Source: Chrysiogenes arsenatis DSM 11915
GTDB taxonomy: Bacteria > Chrysiogenota > Chrysiogenetes > Chrysiogenales > Chrysiogenaceae
Assembly (NCBI RefSeq): GCF_000469585.1
Contig: NZ_AWNK01000001.1
Coordinates: 310,731-374,730, forward strand
Length of the DNA: 64,000 bases
Reading direction: 5' to 3'
In this document: positions 47,947 through 55,879 of the stretch, piece by piece
Numbering within the stretch: position 1 is the first letter of the stretch
Layout of the letters: every line of letters starts with the position of its first letter
Position numbers and translations under genes: made by a program
Notes under the pieces: generated by a model
Seen by the model: the letters and a program-made list of their open reading frames with translations, nothing else
What the model was told of the DNA's origin: nothing
Database searches by the model: none

Positions 47947-48067
47947 AGCCATCCTCCTTATTACATAATGCCTTTTATCAACGCAAAAAAAGCGCCATGT
48001 CGCGCTAACACATTCAGACAAGAGAGTTATGTGAGTTTTCGTATAAAAAAGACAGGGGAAATACACG

Positions 48068-48104
48068 ATAAAAGCCGTGGCATGCAACGGTTTTTGCCAC
48101 GGCT
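48068..48104 (-). terminator. Terminator of htpX
   Basis: On the minus strand AGCCGTGGCA pairs with TGCCACGGCT (48073–48082 with 48095–48104) and is followed by TTTTATC. It lies 33 bases after the htpX stop, separating htpX from clpB. Confidence 0.85.
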
Positions 48105-48137
48105 CAAAACATCAGAATGTGCTCATCACAGCAAAAC

Positions 48138-48992
48138 CTATAGCCGTTGCGCCAAAAGCTGCAGCTTTGCAATCCGATCCTGCGTCGAAGGATGAGTGCT
48201 AAAAAGGTTCGCCATACTCTTGCCAGTTAGCGGATTGATAATAAACATGTGCGCGGTTGCCGGATTCGCCTGCATTGACGCCGCCCCACGTGCGTAGGTT
48301 TCGAGTTTCCCCAGCGCCGAAGCGAGTGCCAACGGTTTGCCACACATCAGCGCCCCACCTTCATCGGCTTGATATTCCCGAGAGCGGGAAATAGCCATCT
48401 GAATCACGCCCGCGGCAATCGGTGCCACAATCGCTACAGCGATCATCGCAATCGGGTTGCTCCCCTGCCCATTATCGCGGTTTGAACCGAAGATAGCCGC
48501 AAACTGTGCCATGGTCGCAAGCATGCTGATAACCGAAGCAAGTACCGCGGCAATGGTTTGAATCAAGATATCGCGGTGCTTAATGTGAGCCAATTCGTGG
48601 GCAATTACCCCTTCGATTTCATCGCGGTTCAAAATCCGCAGCAGCCCTTCCGTGAGTGCCACGACCCCGTGTTCAGGATCGCGCCCTGTGGCAAAGGCAT
48701 TCGGCGTCTGCTCAGGGATAATGTAGAGCTTCGGCATCGGCAAATTGCCACGCTGCGTCAAGCGAGCCACCATATCGTAGATTTCCGGTGCCTGTTCGCG
48801 AGTAATCGGTTGCGCCTTGTACATTTTGAGCACAATTTGATCGCTAAACCAATACGAGCCAACATTCATAATCATGGCAAAAACAAAGGCAACCATCACT
48901 CCACTTTGTCCGCCGATAGCTCCGCCGATGGCGATGACCAGCATACTGAGCAAACCCATCAGCACAATAGATTTCAACGTATTGAAGTTCAT
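48138..48992 (-). CDS. htpX: Membrane zinc metalloprotease HtpX
   Basis: This M48 family protease of membrane-protein quality control has 285 residues. Two N-terminal helices (about 5–50) are followed by the zinc motif HELAH in VIAHELAHIKHRD near residue 135, two further helices, and the third ligand region SREYQADEGGA. The start is the ATG at 48992 with GAGG upstream; in-frame codons farther up lack a ribosome-binding site. With clpB next to it, the pair forms a protein-stress cluster, though each has its own transcript. Confidence 0.95.
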   Translation of the reverse strand: MNFNTLKSIVLMGLLSMLVIAIGGAIGGQSGVMVAFVFAMIMNVGSYWFSDQIVLKMYKAQPITREQAPEIYDMVARLTQRGNLPMPKLYIIPEQTPNAFATGRDPEHGVVALTEGLLRILNRDEIEGVIAHELAHIKHRDILIQTIAAVLASVISMLATMAQFAAIFGSNRDNGQGSNPIAMIAVAIVAPIAAGVIQMAISRSREYQADEGGALMCGKPLALASALGKLETYARGAASMQANPATAHMFIINPLTGKSMANLFSTHPSTQDRIAKLQLLAQRL

Positions 48993-49110
48993 ACTGCACC
49001 TCACTTTCTTGTTTAACGTGTTTCTTTGCAAAAACCTTGCGAATTTGAGGGGACTCTATAGCGAAAAATTGCGAGAGGGGCAAGGAGAATCGGAAACGAG
49101 ACGACGATTT

Positions 49111-49878
49111 TCAGGACGCCTTTTTGAGTCTATAGATTTTCGCCACGTAACGGTGGAATATCTTCCCCGCAGGAAACAATGCCGCGTAGCATTGCATAAA
49201 TGCGTGATAAAAGCGCTTGTTTCCGTGATAGCCATCGCGTGTCGCGGTGACACCGGCATGGCTTAACGCATGGAGTGCTTCACGCGGCGAAGGGTGCCAC
49301 GTAAATCCCTCCCAATCGCTACTATGCTCGATTGCTAAGCCGCTTTGCATGATCGACGCATCCAGTGTTGCCACCGACGGCAACGGGGTCGCTGCGGCCA
49401 CAGGGAGACCGCACTGTGTCAATGCTTCGCGCCGCGCGTCGCCAACTTCGCGCAATGTTCCTTCAACGAGCACGGCCAGCGCCGCCACACCGTGAGGGGC
49501 AAGCACTCGCGCCACTTCGTTAAAAAAAATGACCGGCTCTTCCAGCCATTGCACCATCGCCGAAGAGACCACTGCCGCCACCGAGCCACCGCAAAACGGG
49601 AGTGCTTCAGCATCACCCTGCAAAACGTGACGATAGTACGCCTGCGACCGCTGGCACATGGCGAAGGAGAGATCGACCGCGACCATCGGCGTCGTGGCGA
49701 GTCGTCCCAAAACACCATCGCCCGCGCCAACATCGAGAATAATACCCGACGTCGGCAGTGCCGCGCCGCACCGCTCCAGCAAAGTAGCTGCCAAAGCCTG
49801 TTGCGCCGCGCTGTATTCTTGGTAATGGAGCGCACCACGGTCAAAGTTGTGGCGCACTCTCCCTTTTAATGAATTCAC
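49111..49878 (-). CDS. bioC: Malonyl-ACP O-methyltransferase
   Basis: BioC methylates malonyl-ACP so that it can be elongated to pimeloyl-ACP methyl ester for biotin. It has 255 residues. The N-terminal VRHNFDRGALHYQEYSAAQQ is a BioC hallmark; SAM motif I is ILDVGAGDGVLGRL, followed by VVSSAMVQWLEEP and HFSP-type C-terminal features. I start at GTG 49878, which has AAGGAG five bases upstream and lies within the end of the preceding gene (38-base overlap). A longer reading to 49932 is less likely. Genes bioF, bioA, bioB and bioD are not in the window. Confidence 0.85.
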   Translation of the reverse strand: MNSLKGRVRHNFDRGALHYQEYSAAQQALAATLLERCGAALPTSGIILDVGAGDGVLGRLATTPMVAVDLSFAMCQRSQAYYRHVLQGDAEALPFCGGSVAAVVSSAMVQWLEEPVIFFNEVARVLAPHGVAALAVLVEGTLREVGDARREALTQCGLPVAAATPLPSVATLDASIMQSGLAIEHSSDWEGFTWHPSPREALHALSHAGVTATRDGYHGNKRFYHAFMQCYAALFPAGKIFHRYVAKIYRLKKAS

Positions 49879-50485
49879 AAAACTCCTTTTCGCGCTCCGC
49901 CAAGGTCGCTTCAAGCAGACACGGAGCCGCATGTCCCACGTCAGTCGTATACCAGCTTACTGGACGGGAGAGGTGATACCAGAATTCGCGGCTTGCTTCC
50001 AGCGCTATCACCAGGTCAGCACGATCGGCACTACAACTCACCGGACAGGCCAGTGAAAGAATTTTTTCGTGCCAATCCCAAGTTGCCAGCATGCGTAGTC
50101 CCGCGAGCGCGGTCGCAACATCCATTTGAGTATCTTGCAAATGGGCAGGAACATAAATTGAATCGAGGTAGGCGGCAATAATCGCGTGGTGATCGTGGCG
50201 GCAGCCTCGTTCCATCGCCCGCAAAGGGGGAAGTGGCAAGCCGTGCGCGCCACCAATAAATTGCAGTGTCGGCGCGTAGAGGAAAAGCCCTTTGACGATC
50301 TGTGGATAGCGCAACGCACATTCACAGGACACCATCGCCCCAAGCGACCATCCGAGTACCACCAGCGGTACGGTGCTCGCTGCAATCAACGACTCCGCAT
50401 CGTACCAGTTGCAGACCATATCGCAACGCGCCGCGTGTTCACTATCGGGTCTTGCGCCCCAACCACTAACGTACAGGGTTTTCAT
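49841..50485 (-). CDS. BioH-like α/β-hydrolase (pimeloyl-ACP methyl esterase)
   Basis: This 214-residue α/β-hydrolase is probably the esterase that releases pimeloyl-ACP. The N-terminal TLYVSGWGARP gives the oxyanion segment, the nucleophile is S47 in LGWSLGAM (identical in pattern to BioH), and a late aspartate (CSADRADLV) and histidine (DVGHAAP) complete the triad. It is shorter than E. coli BioH (256) and lacks part of the cap. It sits between bioW and bioC, overlapping both. Confidence 0.75.
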   Translation of the reverse strand: MKTLYVSGWGARPDSEHAARCDMVCNWYDAESLIAASTVPLVVLGWSLGAMVSCECALRYPQIVKGLFLYAPTLQFIGGAHGLPLPPLRAMERGCRHDHHAIIAAYLDSIYVPAHLQDTQMDVATALAGLRMLATWDWHEKILSLACPVSCSADRADLVIALEASREFWYHLSRPVSWYTTDVGHAAPCLLEATLAEREKEFCEFIKRESAPQL

Positions 50486-51237
50486 ACCGTATCAATCCGG
50501 AAAAAATCAGTCGTCGCCAGCATGGGGCGCTCTTCCAGCCACTCGATGATAACGGTTAAAGGTGTTGCGTCGTCGATCAAAAATACGCGCCCGCCGCCGC
50601 TTTGTTCACCTTTCAGGGCTTTCAACCGCACATAGCCCGTGAGGGCTGAAGCAAAATAGCCATGCGGATAGCCACGGTCGTCACTCAGGCAGATCTCCGC
50701 TAACACGCCAGGTGCCGCAAGGGCTTTTGACGTCAAGAGTAACGCTTCCAAAATGCGTTGCGGCTGATCGCTGATTGTCGCCAATTGCTGCGCCAGTTGC
50801 GCCCGTTGTCCACGTTCCAGTCCGAAATGACTGACGCGAACCCCACGGGCATCGCCATGCAGAATCAACTCGCCCGAGGTACGCAAGAGTGCCGCACCGC
50901 GCAGTGGCGGTTGGTTTGCGAGACGCTGGAGGGCGTGCCAGAGAGCCATCACATCGAGCGAAGCACCACAACGCGCGGCAAGCAACGGCAACATATCGTG
51001 TCCCAAAGCAACTGGGTCACACACCGGCAGCAGCGGGAACGTACCCGCAATTTCGACGTGATCGATACGGATATTGATCGACTCTGGCTGACCATTGACG
51101 TGGCCAAAGGCGCGCGCCGCAACGTCTTGCGCAGCACGAGGAATTTCTTCCATCGGAAGAATATCCTCGTACCCAGACAGATGCCGTGCCTCGCAATCAG
51201 CGGCACGCATCCGGAGTGAATACCACTGATCATTCAC
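50482..51237 (-). CDS. bioW: 6-carboxyhexanoate–CoA ligase (pimeloyl-CoA synthetase)
   Basis: BioW activates free pimelate to pimeloyl-CoA with ATP. It has 251 residues, as in Bacillus. The N-terminal YSLRMRAADCEARHLSGYED follows the family pattern YS(V/I)RMRAS…HISGAER; the core has RGAALLRTSG, GVRVSHFGLE, LEALLLTSKALAAPGVLAEICLSDD and the closing VRLKALKGEQSGGGRVFLID (each partial). It starts with an ATGA overlap on trpA. A pathway using BioW normally does not need BioC/BioH, so the combination is unusual. Confidence 0.85.
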   Translation of the reverse strand: MNDQWYSLRMRAADCEARHLSGYEDILPMEEIPRAAQDVAARAFGHVNGQPESINIRIDHVEIAGTFPLLPVCDPVALGHDMLPLLAARCGASLDVMALWHALQRLANQPPLRGAALLRTSGELILHGDARGVRVSHFGLERGQRAQLAQQLATISDQPQRILEALLLTSKALAAPGVLAEICLSDDRGYPHGYFASALTGYVRLKALKGEQSGGGRVFLIDDATPLTVIIEWLEERPMLATTDFFRIDTV

Positions 51238-51977
51238 TCTGCAAGGCTCTCCAAGAAGGCTTTAACCTTCGCCACGTTCGTGCTGAGATCGACGGTGGGG
51301 GATATTTTTTCGATCAACGCCGAGCCAACAATGGCGCCATCGGCGTAATGCAGGGCATCGCGCACCGTGGCGGCATCGCGAATACCAAAGCCAATGCAAA
51401 TCGGCGTCGTAGTCACTTGCCGCGCAACGGCAATTTTGCGGGAAATCGCTTCCAGACTTGATATTTTTGTTCCGGTCACCGCCGCCGAGCTGACGGCGTA
51501 GAGGAAGCCGGTCGCCGATTCCGCAATGGTGCGTACACGGCTATCGTCGCTGCTCGTCGAGATGAAGGAAACGAGATCAATGTTGTGCATACGCGCCGCA
51601 TCGCGAAACGGCGCGGCATGTTCCGGCGCCAGGTCGGGAATAATCGCGCCGCGAATACCAAGCTCACGAAGCATCGCAAAACGATTTTCGGCGCCAACGC
51701 GGGCAAAAAGATTGACATAGGTCATGACGTAATAGTCGGTATTGGAATGGAGTTTCAATTGTGTCAGGTCACGAAAGCGAGTGCCGCGCGACAACGCGTA
51801 GTCGCTGGCCGCCTGAATCACGGGGCCATCGGCCATGGGATCAGAAAAAGGGATACCTATTTCGACACGCTGAATGCCGAGTTCGGCAAAGAGATCGAGC
51901 AATGCTTGGGTCGTCGCACGATCGGGATACCCAAGGGTGACGTAGGGAATAATGCGCGAAAGGGTTGTTGCGTTCAT
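51234..51977 (-). CDS. trpA: Tryptophan synthase α subunit
   Basis: TrpA cleaves indole-3-glycerol phosphate and passes indole to TrpB. It has 247 residues. The catalytic Glu is in RVEIGIPFSDPMADGPVIQ and the catalytic Asp in IIPDLAPEH; the phosphate loop is GFGIRDAATV. Start at 51977 follows the trpB stop by one base and a GGAG box; an extension to 52031 would run inside trpB. The remaining trp genes are not here. Confidence 0.95.
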   Translation of the reverse strand: MNATTLSRIIPYVTLGYPDRATTQALLDLFAELGIQRVEIGIPFSDPMADGPVIQAASDYALSRGTRFRDLTQLKLHSNTDYYVMTYVNLFARVGAENRFAMLRELGIRGAIIPDLAPEHAAPFRDAARMHNIDLVSFISTSSDDSRVRTIAESATGFLYAVSSAAVTGTKISSLEAISRKIAVARQVTTTPICIGFGIRDAATVRDALHYADGAIVGSALIEKISPTVDLSTNVAKVKAFLESLAE

Positions 51978-51978
51978 A

Positions 51979-53148
51979 TTATAACTCCACATGCTGGCGA
52001 ATGATGCCGATATCTTTGTCGCCACGCCCACTCAGGGTAACGACGATATTTTTTCCCGTACCGATTTCTGCAATCACCTGCGGTAAGGCGGCCAACGCAT
52101 GCGATGACTCCAATGCGGGGAGAATCCCCTCGCAACGGGTCAATTCAATGCAGGATGCCAGCGCTTCTTTGTCATCAACAACGATGTATTTTGCGCGACC
52201 AGAATCGGATAACCACGCGTGTTCTGGGCCGACGCCAGGGTAATCGAGCCCCGCCGAGATGGAATGGGTATCGCGAATATTCCCCTCTTCATCGCACATA
52301 AAGTACGAGTAAAAGCCATGTAAAATCCCTTTGGTTCCTTCGTTAATCGGTGCGGCATGTTGGCCAGAAGCGAGGCCATACCCACCCGCTTCGACGCCGA
52401 AAAGCTTAACTTCCGTATCTTTGTAGTAGCCACTGAACATGCCAATGGCGTTGGAACCACCACCAACACTGGCAATTACCGCATCCGGATGGCAGAGATT
52501 GCGCTGATAGAACTGCGCGCGGGTTTCGTTCCCGATGACGGACTGAAAGGCTTGGACAATGCGCGGGTATGGCGATGGGCCAAGTGCCGAGCCGACAATG
52601 TAGTGGGTATCATCAGAGGTCGCAATCCAGTTGCGCAGCGCTTCGCTGGTGGCATCTTTCAGCGTTTTACTTCCCGACTCGACGAGCGATACCTGCGCCC
52701 CAAGGAGTTTCATCCGGAAGAGGTTGGCCTCCTGCCGTGCGGCATCGACACTCCCCATGTAGACCGTACACTCCAGCCCAAGCAAAGCCGCCGCCGTTGC
52801 CGTCGCGACCCCATGTTGCCCAGCGCCAGTTTCCGCAATCACACGTGTTTTCCCCATCCGTTTTGCGAGTAACGCTTGGCCGATGGTGTTGTTAATTTTA
52901 TGTGCACCGGTATGCGCTAAATCTTCACGCTTGAGGTAAATATGGCTGTTATAGATTTTACTGAGCGTTGGTACATAGGTCAGCGGCGTTTGACGCCCGA
53001 CGTACTCGCACATAAGGCGGTCGAACTCCGCCAAAAACTGGCGATCCCGCATTGCGGTTTCAAAGGCGGTTGTCAGCTCTTCAAGTGGACGAATCAATAG
53101 TTCGGGAACATAGGCGCCACCGTATGGGCCATATTGGTAAATCGACAT
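51979..53148 (-). CDS. trpB: Tryptophan synthase β subunit
   Basis: TrpB joins indole with serine using PLP. It has 389 residues. The PLP lysine is in HTGAHKINNTIGQ, the conserved AETGAGQHGVATAT is intact, and the phosphate loop is VGGGSNAIGMF. I start at ATG 53148 (MSIYQYGPYGG), preceded by AGGAG; the in-frame region further upstream is not TrpB-like and would reach the next gene. Only trpB and trpA are linked, and they lead into the biotin genes. Confidence 0.97.
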   Translation of the reverse strand: MSIYQYGPYGGAYVPELLIRPLEELTTAFETAMRDRQFLAEFDRLMCEYVGRQTPLTYVPTLSKIYNSHIYLKREDLAHTGAHKINNTIGQALLAKRMGKTRVIAETGAGQHGVATATAAALLGLECTVYMGSVDAARQEANLFRMKLLGAQVSLVESGSKTLKDATSEALRNWIATSDDTHYIVGSALGPSPYPRIVQAFQSVIGNETRAQFYQRNLCHPDAVIASVGGGSNAIGMFSGYYKDTEVKLFGVEAGGYGLASGQHAAPINEGTKGILHGFYSYFMCDEEGNIRDTHSISAGLDYPGVGPEHAWLSDSGRAKYIVVDDKEALASCIELTRCEGILPALESSHALAALPQVIAEIGTGKNIVVTLSGRGDKDIGIIRQHVEL

Positions 53149-53227
53149 AATACAACGTCTCCTGCAGTATCGTATGCGCACAAAATTGTGTGTTTTTCTT
53201 AGTTTCCGGTGCCACGATGGTGTTCCC

Positions 53228-53584
53228 TTACACGGGCATCGAGCGACCATCGTTCAAATAAATGATCCCTTTAATAATCCGGTAGAGCACCCAAATGGCC
53301 GTTGCCAGCAACACAAAATAGCCAATCGCGATGAGGAAGAGGATCACCCCTAGCGCACCCCACGCCATGCTGTACCAAAACGTCCGCATTTGCCAACGAA
53401 AGTGGGACTCTAGCCATGTCCCACGCACATCGTCAAGTTTGATATAGTTTACCATAATCGCAGCAATGTACGTCAGCCCGACAATGCACGCCAGCGCTTG
53501 CAGCACATACACGATCATCGTGAGTGTTTTCAACGAGCGGATGTCGCGCCCTGGGTCAATATCAATAATTGTATTTGAATCCAT
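53228..53584 (-). CDS. Small membrane protein, COG3671-like
   Basis: This 118-residue protein with three hydrophobic helices resembles the uncharacterised COG3671/DUF4870-like family. The segment WLESHFRWQMRTFWYS followed by a helix and the ending WVLYRIIKGIIYLNDGR are typical. Function unknown. AAGGA precedes the ATG, and it starts nine bases after the GGDEF–EAL gene. Confidence 0.75.
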   Translation of the reverse strand: MDSNTIIDIDPGRDIRSLKTLTMIVYVLQALACIVGLTYIAAIMVNYIKLDDVRGTWLESHFRWQMRTFWYSMAWGALGVILFLIAIGYFVLLATAIWVLYRIIKGIIYLNDGRSMPV

Positions 53585-53593
53585 ACCATTCCT

Positions 53594-55879
53594 TTAGGTT
53601 GCAGTATTGCGAGAACGCGCTTGTGAGCGCACCAAAGCCTCAAAATCTTCACACGGAACCGGGCGCCCAAAGTAATACCCTTGGAAGGTTTCGCAACCGT
53701 AGCGATAGAGATACTCTTTTTGCGCTTCGGTTTCCACCCCTTCGGCTATCGCCTGTAGCTCCAAGCTGTGCGCCATTGCGATAATGGTCTGAACAATCGC
53801 CGCACTGCCACGGTCACTCGTCAGGTCGCGCACAAAGGATTGATCAATTTTCAACTGACACAAGGGTAACTGTTGCAGATAACTCAACGAAGAGTATCCC
53901 GTACCAAAGTCATCCATAGAAAAGCCAACACCTATCGCACGCAACGTTTGCATTTTTTCGATCGCATCGGTGACATTCTCTACCACGAGACTCTCGGTTA
54001 ACTCAAGCTTCAGATGAGACGGATTGATCCCACTGGCCTGCAACAGATCTTCCAACTCAGCCACAAAATCGGTTTGACGGAACTGGCGCGCGCTCACATT
54101 GACCGCCAATTGTAGGTTTTCAAACCCAGCTTGAGACTCCCACGCCTTGAGCTGGCGACACGCTGTTTCAAGTACCATTTGTCCGATAGGGATAATTAAT
54201 CCTGTCTCTTCCGCCAACGGGATAAAGGCGGCTGGCGACACCATGCCCCGTTCTGGATGAATCCAACGGAGGAGCAACTCTGCTCCAAAAATGTCGCCGT
54301 GATAGTTCACTTGCAGTTGGTAAAAAAGGACAAATTGCCCTTCTGGCAATGCCGCCCGCAACTCGGAAGCGAGTTTCAGCCTGTTTTCCAGTTTTAGCTG
54401 CAAACCGGGATCGAAAAAACGGAGGGTATTTCTCCCCGCTCCTTTCGCTTGATACATCGCCGCATCCGCTCGACGCAGCAACTCGTCACCGCGCATATTG
54501 TTATCGTAAAACAAACCGATTCCGATACTTGGCGTGGTCTGATATTCAAGTTCTCCAAGTCGAAATGGCTCATTGATTGACAAGCGAATTTTTTCGGCGA
54601 TCTTCTCCGCCTGTGCCAGCACGGCACTTTCGTCCTGACTTAAATCTTCCGCTAAAATAACAAACTCATCGCCACCCAACCGCGCCACGGTATCGCATTC
54701 CCGCAGAATACTGCGCAAGCGGCGCGACACTTCTATCAAGAGTTGGTCGCCCATCTCATGGCCATGAACATCATTAAGCGTTTTAAAATTATCGAGATCG
54801 ATCAGAAAAAGTGCCCCGTGATGTTTCGTGCGATGACAGGAAGCCAAGGCTTGCTGAAGCCGCTCCTGAAACATACGACGATTGGGAAGTCCTGTAAGAT
54901 AGTCGTAGAATGCTAGGCGGTGAATTTCCGCTTCGGCCTCTTTATTGTAGCTAATATCGGAAAAGGTCGCGACATAGTGAACAGGTTCTCCGGCGTCATT
55001 CAGAACCGCCGAAATACAGAGCCACTCGGGATAGATTTTACCATTTTTACGCCGATTCCATATCTCGCCCTGCCAGAAGTTATTCTGGCGCAGTTGTTCC
55101 CACATCCGTTTGTAGAAAAAGTCGTCATGCCGACCAGATTTAAGGATGCGCGGATTTTTCCCTACCACCTCTTCCGCAGCATACCCCGTGAGTTTACAGA
55201 ACGCTGGATTGACCCGCAAAACGTTTCCCGCAGTATCGGTGATGCACATCCCTTCCTGAGCGTTAAAGGCAATCGCCGCAATTTGCAACTCGTACTGCGT
55301 TTCAACCTGATCTGTAACGTCAATCAAACTTATGAGCACAACCGGCATAGCAGGATTATGCGGTGCCAGTTGAACCCCTGCTTCTTCTGAACGCCCAGCA
55401 ATACGGGCATAAAAAAAAGTTTTATCGTGGCGCATAATCCGTGTTTGCAGAACTTTACCATCGGGATATTTGAAAAATGGTTGATAGCGTGCAAAGAATT
55501 GATCGCGATCGTCAGCGTGCAAAATATGACCAACAGGCTTCCCTAAGAGTTCGGCAAGATCACCCTGAAGCATACCCGCGAATGTCGCGTTAGCTTGCAG
55601 TATCATCCCGTTTCTATCAAGGGTAAGGTACCCAACCGGAGCATGGTGATACAGGCGCGAAAAGCTATTGCGCGCAAGTTCTAACTGCTGCTGCGTCCGG
55701 TGCAATTCTTCGTTTTGCAGTTCCAGCTCAACCTGATGCACCGAAAGATCGTGAATCAGGGTTTTCAGGTCATCGCAAATCGACTGCTCTGTATCAGGAT
55801 TATGCTGCGATAGAATTGTATTGGCTCGTTCTCTGAGTTCCTTCCGGTACCCACCATGGCTGTCGCTGCCGCGAAACAT
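53594..55879 (-). CDS. PAS–PAS–GGDEF–EAL c-di-GMP protein
   Basis: This cytoplasmic protein of 761 residues has a coiled-coil start (about 20–70), two PAS domains (about 70–195 and 200–320), GGDEF (about 325–490) and EAL (about 500–755). The GGDEF motif is intact in RLGGDEFV, and the inhibitory RxxD site is RECD. The EAL site reads GAELLLRW, and SMDDFGTGYSSL with LKIDQSFV is intact, so both synthesis and hydrolysis of c-di-GMP are possible. It lies 15 bases after the histidine kinase. It is a close paralogue of the gene at the window end. Confidence 0.93.
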   Translation of the reverse strand: MFRGSDSHGGYRKELRERANTILSQHNPDTEQSICDDLKTLIHDLSVHQVELELQNEELHRTQQQLELARNSFSRLYHHAPVGYLTLDRNGMILQANATFAGMLQGDLAELLGKPVGHILHADDRDQFFARYQPFFKYPDGKVLQTRIMRHDKTFFYARIAGRSEEAGVQLAPHNPAMPVVLISLIDVTDQVETQYELQIAAIAFNAQEGMCITDTAGNVLRVNPAFCKLTGYAAEEVVGKNPRILKSGRHDDFFYKRMWEQLRQNNFWQGEIWNRRKNGKIYPEWLCISAVLNDAGEPVHYVATFSDISYNKEAEAEIHRLAFYDYLTGLPNRRMFQERLQQALASCHRTKHHGALFLIDLDNFKTLNDVHGHEMGDQLLIEVSRRLRSILRECDTVARLGGDEFVILAEDLSQDESAVLAQAEKIAEKIRLSINEPFRLGELEYQTTPSIGIGLFYDNNMRGDELLRRADAAMYQAKGAGRNTLRFFDPGLQLKLENRLKLASELRAALPEGQFVLFYQLQVNYHGDIFGAELLLRWIHPERGMVSPAAFIPLAEETGLIIPIGQMVLETACRQLKAWESQAGFENLQLAVNVSARQFRQTDFVAELEDLLQASGINPSHLKLELTESLVVENVTDAIEKMQTLRAIGVGFSMDDFGTGYSSLSYLQQLPLCQLKIDQSFVRDLTSDRGSAAIVQTIIAMAHSLELQAIAEGVETEAQKEYLYRYGCETFQGYYFGRPVPCEDFEALVRSQARSRNTAT

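What the first reader, a model, noticed from the sequence alone, without database searches (positions are those of the whole stretch)
49111..51237. bioW next to bioC and a bioH-like esterase: two pimelate routes in one operon
BioW makes pimeloyl-CoA from free pimelate, while BioC and BioH make pimeloyl-ACP from malonyl-ACP. They are regarded as alternative routes, yet here the three genes overlap in one transcript after trpBA. Possibilities are that the hydrolase frees pimelate for BioW, giving a hybrid pathway, or that the cell uses both routes.
Basis: partly seen in the sequence, partly recalled or inferred. Interest (0 to 1): 0.62.

Follow-up and report, generated by a model that had tools for sequence, protein, structure and literature searches.

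The report
Biotin operon with two pimelate routes
This bacterium carries, in one overlapping gene row behind two tryptophan genes, the enzymes of both known ways to make the carbon chain of the vitamin biotin; the same pairing is common in another bacterial order and was noted there in 2004, so it is a real but not unprecedented arrangement whose purpose is still untested.

Summary
On the minus strand, trpB-trpA-bioW-hydrolase-bioC overlap end to start. The 50482-51237 product is a BioW (PF03744, E 1.4e-47) that keeps the substrate-contacting residues. The 49111 product is the only full-length BioC match in the genome (98 bits; next best 44). The 214-aa hydrolase is a shortened BioH-type esterase with an intact Ser-Asp-His triad. 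bioF, bioB, bioA and bioD lie elsewhere in the genome.

The pairing is not unique. In 136 genomes of the order Desulfuromonadales (my label), 84 have both BioW and BioC, and in 77 bioC lies about 2.06 kb behind bioW (bioW-bioF-bioH-bioC), mostly behind a BirA box. Rodionov et al. 2004 already reported both routes in Desulfuromonas.

A first BioF tree seemed to favour a serial 'hybrid' pathway. A control removed that: BioF of bioF-bioH-bioC operons without bioW is the sister of the BioW-linked ones, and one genome lost bioW exactly while keeping bioF-bioH-bioC. The best reading is two converging routes, with BioW activating free (probably scavenged) pimelate. The hybrid remains possible but has no positive evidence.

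The parts
50482..51237 (-). bioW, 6-carboxyhexanoate(pimelate)-CoA ligase, 251 aa, GTG start overlapping the trpA stop by 4 nt
   Evidence: PF03744 E 1.4e-47, full length; only BioW in the genome; Y190, Y202, R204 match B. subtilis Y199, Y211, R213 (residues named in PMC9544090)
49841..50485 (-). short BioH-type alpha/beta hydrolase, 214 aa, ATG start overlapping the bioW stop by 4 nt; predicted pimeloyl-ACP methyl ester esterase
   Evidence: S47, D157, H185 invariant with 19 bioC-linked BioH homologues and E. coli BioH; model pLDDT 78, BioH structures among the best TM-scores, 0.79-0.81 by query length
49111..49878 (-). bioC, malonyl-ACP O-methyltransferase, 255 aa from the likely GTG start at 49878 (ORF list starts at 49932)
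   Evidence: TIGR02072 98.3 bits over positions 1-228, best in genome by 54 bits; start from sequence
51234..52031 (-). trpA, upstream gene of the same row
   Evidence: TIGR00262 182.5 bits, over cut-off
51979..53250 (-). trpB, first recognised enzyme gene of the row
   Evidence: TIGR00263 571.3 bits, over cut-off

Best explanation
The three genes encode two routes to the pimeloyl thioester that meet at one BioF. BioC methylates malonyl-ACP, fatty-acid synthesis lengthens it to pimeloyl-ACP methyl ester, and the small BioH-type hydrolase removes the methyl group to give pimeloyl-ACP. BioW separately turns free pimelate, most likely taken up from outside, into pimeloyl-CoA. The single BioF found (next to dnaA) would use both, and BioA, BioD and BioB finish biotin. 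Shown: the genes, their overlaps, conserved catalytic residues, and the rest of the pathway in the genome. Inferred: every activity, the source of pimelate, and that BioF takes both thioesters.
For: Full gene set: bioW, bioF, bioB, bioA, bioD, BioC. The same pairing is conserved in Desulfuromonadales: 84 of 136 genomes with both, 77 in one operon; BirA boxes lie ahead of bioW there. Class-mates outside that order, 20 of 20 sampled loci, have bioF-bioH-bioC with no bioW within the fetched stretch, and their BioF is sister to the BioW-associated ones (99 SH-aLRT). So this BioF lineage works with BioC-BioH alone. Genome G135 keeps bioF-bioH-bioC at the same site (ccs genes ahead) with bioW missing. 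Other genomes keep both routes at separate loci: Halalkalibacterium halodurans (with a BioF for each), Pelosinus fermentans JBW45, Ectobacillus funiculus.
Against: In Desulfuromonadales BioW almost never occurs without BioC: of 5 apparent cases, 3 are contigs that end early. A pure salvage gene might be expected to outlive BioC in some lineages. B. subtilis BioF does not use pimeloyl-ACP (PMC7645780), and the donor used by this organism's BioF is unknown; its place in the BioF tree is unresolved. No pimelate transporter was looked for.
Confidence: 0.66

Rival explanations
1. Hybrid serial pathway: BioC and fatty-acid synthesis make pimeloyl-ACP methyl ester; the hydrolase, alone or with a thioesterase, releases free pimelate; BioW re-activates it to pimeloyl-CoA, the only form BioF accepts. 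bioC and bioW would each be essential.
For: Near-complete co-occurrence and operon linkage of bioW with bioH-bioC in Desulfuromonadales; the source of BioW's pimelate is described as unknown in any strain (PMC11089781); the shortened hydrolase might have a changed specificity. A first BioF tree put these BioFs with BioW-type ones.
Against: With BioC-only class-mates added, the BioW-associated BioFs are sister to BioFs of bioF-bioH-bioC operons without bioW, and G135 lost bioW while keeping the other three. The hydrolase keeps the BioH triad and fold; nothing points to a thioesterase.
Confidence: 0.18
2. Only BioW is active in biotin synthesis; the hydrolase and methyltransferase are diverged genes on their way to loss or serve another pathway.
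For: BioC and the hydrolase score well below the equivalog cut-offs and BioC sits on a long branch; BioC is not found in the two relatives.
Against: Full open frames, tight overlaps, intact triad, full-length BioC match; BioW itself is also divergent (end branch 2.7), so fast change is not limited to these two.
Confidence: 0.08
3. Only the BioC-BioH route is active and BioW is a relic or has another acid as substrate.
For: BioW is below the NCBIfam cut-offs and has a long branch.
Against: Active-site residues conserved, including the tyrosine tied to pimelate selectivity in the BioW domain of CaBioWF; kept as first bio gene in an overlapping row.
Confidence: 0.08

Closest known systems
bioW-bioF-bioH-bioC operon of Desulfuromonas and relatives (both routes reported by Rodionov et al. 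2004, PMC545781)
   Same: BioW together with the BioH-BioC pair in one operon; full set of late biotin genes in the genome
   Different: Here bioF is missing from the row and sits by dnaA; the row follows trpBA; no BirA box found; the hydrolase is about 55 residues shorter and all three proteins are divergent
BioC-BioH route of E. coli (bioH upstream of and overlapping bioC in many bacteria, PMC3494674)
   Same: BioC homologue and BioH-type hydrolase with intact triad in the usual order, overlapping
   Different: A BioW gene precedes them; the hydrolase lacks the N-terminal strands of E. coli BioH
BioW route of Bacillus subtilis
   Same: BioW with conserved active-site residues
   Different: B. 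subtilis has bioWAFDBI with no bioC/bioH in it; its BioF takes only pimeloyl-CoA
Genomes with both routes at separate loci (Halalkalibacterium halodurans, Pelosinus fermentans JBW45, Ectobacillus funiculus)
   Same: BioW and BioH-BioC in one genome
   Different: Two unlinked clusters; H. halodurans has a separate BioF in each

Membership tests
BioW (pimelate-CoA ligase) | Match to the BioW profile over its whole length | tested here: met
   PF03744 positions 1-238 of 239, 162.7 bits, cut-off 25
BioW (pimelate-CoA ligase) | NCBIfam equivalog cut-off | tested here: not met
   159.5 of 226 and 102 of 193.55 bits; so a divergent family member, exact substrate not certified
BioW (pimelate-CoA ligase) | Active-site Tyr, Tyr, Arg (B. 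subtilis 199, 211, 213) | tested here: met
   Y190, Y202, R204 in the alignment; residue roles from PMC9544090
BioW (pimelate-CoA ligase) | ATP-dependent pimeloyl-CoA synthesis | not testable with these tools
   needs enzyme assay
BioC (malonyl-ACP O-methyltransferase) | Full-length match to TIGR02072 clearly above other methyltransferases | tested here: met
   98.3 bits over 1-228 of 244; next in genome 44.3
BioC (malonyl-ACP O-methyltransferase) | TIGR02072 equivalog cut-off (184.95 bits) | tested here: not met
   98.3 bits; 72 of 94 Desulfuromonadales BioCs, most of them in bioW-bioF-bioH-bioC operons, are also below it
BioH-type pimeloyl-ACP methyl ester esterase | Ser-Asp-His triad in a GWS(L/M)G hydrolase aligned with BioH | tested here: met
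   S47, D157, H185 invariant in 21 sequences
BioH-type pimeloyl-ACP methyl ester esterase | TIGR01738 equivalog cut-off (206.95 bits) | tested here: not met
   32.7 bits, partial
BioH-type pimeloyl-ACP methyl ester esterase | BioH fold | tested here: met
   AlphaFold model of moderate confidence; BioH structures at TM 0.79-0.81 by query length, but many other esterases score nearly as well
[quoted passage not shown]
   needs enzyme assay or complementation
BioG | Match to the BioG/DUF452 family | tested here: not met
   no BioG or DUF452 family in the Pfam or NCBIfam scans at E <= 0.001
Desulfuromonas-type dual biotin operon | BirA box ahead of the operon | tested here: not met
   none with 13 or more of 18 matches in window 48001-55000; present ahead of bioW in most Desulfuromonadales loci

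The most novel reading that the evidence does not exclude
BioC and the shortened hydrolase feed BioW: this operon is a complete route from malonyl-ACP through free pimelate to pimeloyl-CoA, which would show one way in which free pimelate for BioW is made.
Probability: 0.15. Interest if true: 0.72.

Novelty: new member of a known kind. Interest (0 to 1): 0.36.

Why it matters
Where BioW gets its pimelate is an open question (PMC11089781). Operons that hold BioW with BioC-BioH allow a direct genetic test of whether BioW only salvages pimelate or is fed by BioC-BioH. The survey shows that this is a stable arrangement in a whole order, kept in 77 of 84 genomes as one operon, and that a natural loss of bioW (G135) and a natural absence (bioF-bioH-bioC class-mates) are available as comparisons. 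The window adds a second, distant lineage with the pairing in a different gene setting.

Tried and rejected
1. First BioF tree: BioFs of the dual operons fell with BioW-linked BioFs and apart from BioC-only BioFs, which seemed to favour the hybrid route. This was a sampling effect: with 20 BioC-only class-mates added they became the sister of the dual-operon BioFs. The reading was dropped. A test that holds BioW-linked and dual BioFs together without those class-mates gave p-AU 0.10, so it is disfavoured, not formally rejected. 2. Placing this organism's BioF: long branch, fits with either side (p-AU 0.73 and 0.68). 3. Placing the window BioW with Desulfuromonadales: neither supported nor rejected (p-AU 0.54). 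4. The BioW tree was contaminated with other proteins by a wrong query and is not used; its BioC AU test is not relied on because the group was badly drawn (Desulfuromonadales BioCs of genomes without a BioW hit nest inside it). 6. Promoter and terminator scans were at chance level. 7. Two papers by Manandhar and Cronan on BioF donors and free pimelate are not held; their results are cited through PMC7645780. 8. A paper search for Chrysiogenes and biotin gave nothing on this pathway by title and abstract.

Full report
What is there. On the minus strand the window reads trpB (51979-53250), trpA (51234-52031), bioW (50482-51237), an alpha/beta hydrolase (49841-50485) and bioC (49111 to about 49878), followed by htpX (families). 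bioW overlaps trpA by 4 nt and the hydrolase overlaps bioW by 4 nt; a GTG at 49878 behind AAGGAG is the likely bioC start, giving a 38-nt overlap. One transcript is likely but not shown.

Organism. The window lies on contig 1 of a 2.8 Mb genome; the whole class holds only three genomes in the collection. From that and the genome sizes I think it is Chrysiogenes arsenatis, with Desulfurispira and Desulfurispirillum as the other two; this is an inference, not a tool result.

BioW. PF03744 matches over its full length (E 1.4e-47), below the stricter NCBIfam cut-offs. The residues that contact pimeloyl-CoA in B. subtilis BioW (Tyr199, Tyr211, Arg213; PMC9544090) are Y190, Y202 and R204 here. It is the only BioW of the genome, and the two class-mates have none.

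BioC and the hydrolase. The methyltransferase matches TIGR02072 over positions 1-228 with 98 bits, under the curated cut-off of 185 but far above the next methyltransferase of the genome at 44; the class-mates have nothing better than 47. The hydrolase has only partial BioH profile matches, but aligns end to end with bioC-linked BioH homologues with S47, D157 and H185 invariant. It lacks the N-terminal strands, as do the 232-247-aa homologues beside bioC in Pelosinus, Ectobacillus, Halalkalibacterium and a Nitrospirae genome. A model (mean pLDDT 78) matches BioH structures at TM 0.79-0.81, the highest TM-scores by query length in the list together with one thermophilic esterase, and other esterases are close.

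Rest of the pathway. bioF follows dnaA on contig 12; bioB follows a FabMG-type enoyl reductase on contig 22; bioA-bioD are on contig 22. The genome therefore has one apparent bioF. No BirA box was found near any of these, while boxes with 13 to 16 of 18 matches lie ahead of bioW in nine of eleven Desulfuromonadales loci tested; two more have 12.

How common. A scan of genome contigs with BioW gave 80 loci. Bacillus loci carry bioW-A-F-D-B, Negativicutes bioW-F-D-A, many lineages a bioW-bioF fusion, and none of these has bioC nearby; Desulfuromonadales loci carry bioW-bioF-bioH-bioC. Among 50 BioW genomes, a BioC of at least 143 bits was found in all 13 Desulfuromonadales and in four others. 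In the whole order (136 genomes) 89 have BioW and 94 BioC: 84 both, 5 BioW only, 10 BioC only; in 77 of the 84 bioC lies 2.0-2.4 kb behind bioW on the same strand. Three of the five BioW-only cases are contigs that end inside the operon. Related genomes are not independent, so the Fisher p of 9e-19 only describes the table. Rodionov et al. (2004, PMC545781) already wrote that Desulfuromonas contains both bioC-bioH and bioW, as two pathways, with a BirA site ahead of bioW, and that Geobacter has bioC-bioH.

Hybrid or parallel. If the BioF of dual genomes took only pimeloyl-CoA, as in B. subtilis (PMC7645780), the BioC product would have to pass through BioW. A first BioF tree seemed to say so. 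The control reversed it: in 20 of 20 sampled class-mates outside the order the operon is bioF-bioH-bioC with no bioW within the fetched stretch, and their BioFs are the sister group of the dual-operon BioFs (99 SH-aLRT). Those genomes were not searched whole for BioW. Genome G135, inside the order, has bioF-bioH-bioC directly beside the ccs genes that flank bioW elsewhere, with no BioW hit in its genome. So this BioF lineage functions without BioW, and bioW is best seen as an added entry for free pimelate. H. halodurans carries a second BioF beside bioH-bioC. For the window's own organism the argument is by analogy, because its BioF cannot be placed.

Verdict. The arrangement is a new member of a known, little-studied kind. 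The hybrid pathway is a fair hypothesis that the comparative evidence disfavours but does not exclude.

Noticed in passing
L024:5174-12829 (G002:C1, a class-mate): This relative has no BioW or clear BioC, but a biotin cluster bioA - FabA-like - FabG-like - ... - bioF - bioD with a 14-of-18 BirA box ahead of bioA, like the extended Desulfovibrio operon of Rodionov 2004. Three class-mates thus differ in their pimelate route.
   Followed up: partly
G001 (class-mate): No BioD match, no BioA match over the cut-off, no BioW; perhaps a biotin auxotroph.
   Followed up: no
L027:6721-8868 (own genome, contig 22): bioB follows directly a FabMG-type enoyl-ACP reductase gene (PF22046, E 5e-39); possibly linked to chain building for pimeloyl-ACP.
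   Followed up: no
L026:6884-9505 (own genome, contig 12): bioF follows dnaA with 3 bases between the two reading frames, an unusual place for a biotin gene.
   Followed up: no
L104 and L159 (Halalkalibacterium halodurans): Two complete entries to biotin, bioW-A-F-D-B and bioF-bioH-bioC, each with its own BioF, which fall in different parts of the BioF tree.
   Followed up: partly
L148, L149, L152 (G143, G144, G141): Divergent BioWs of about 129-144 bits form a clade of their own in Desulfuromonadales and are not linked to bioF or bioC; function unclear.
   Followed up: no
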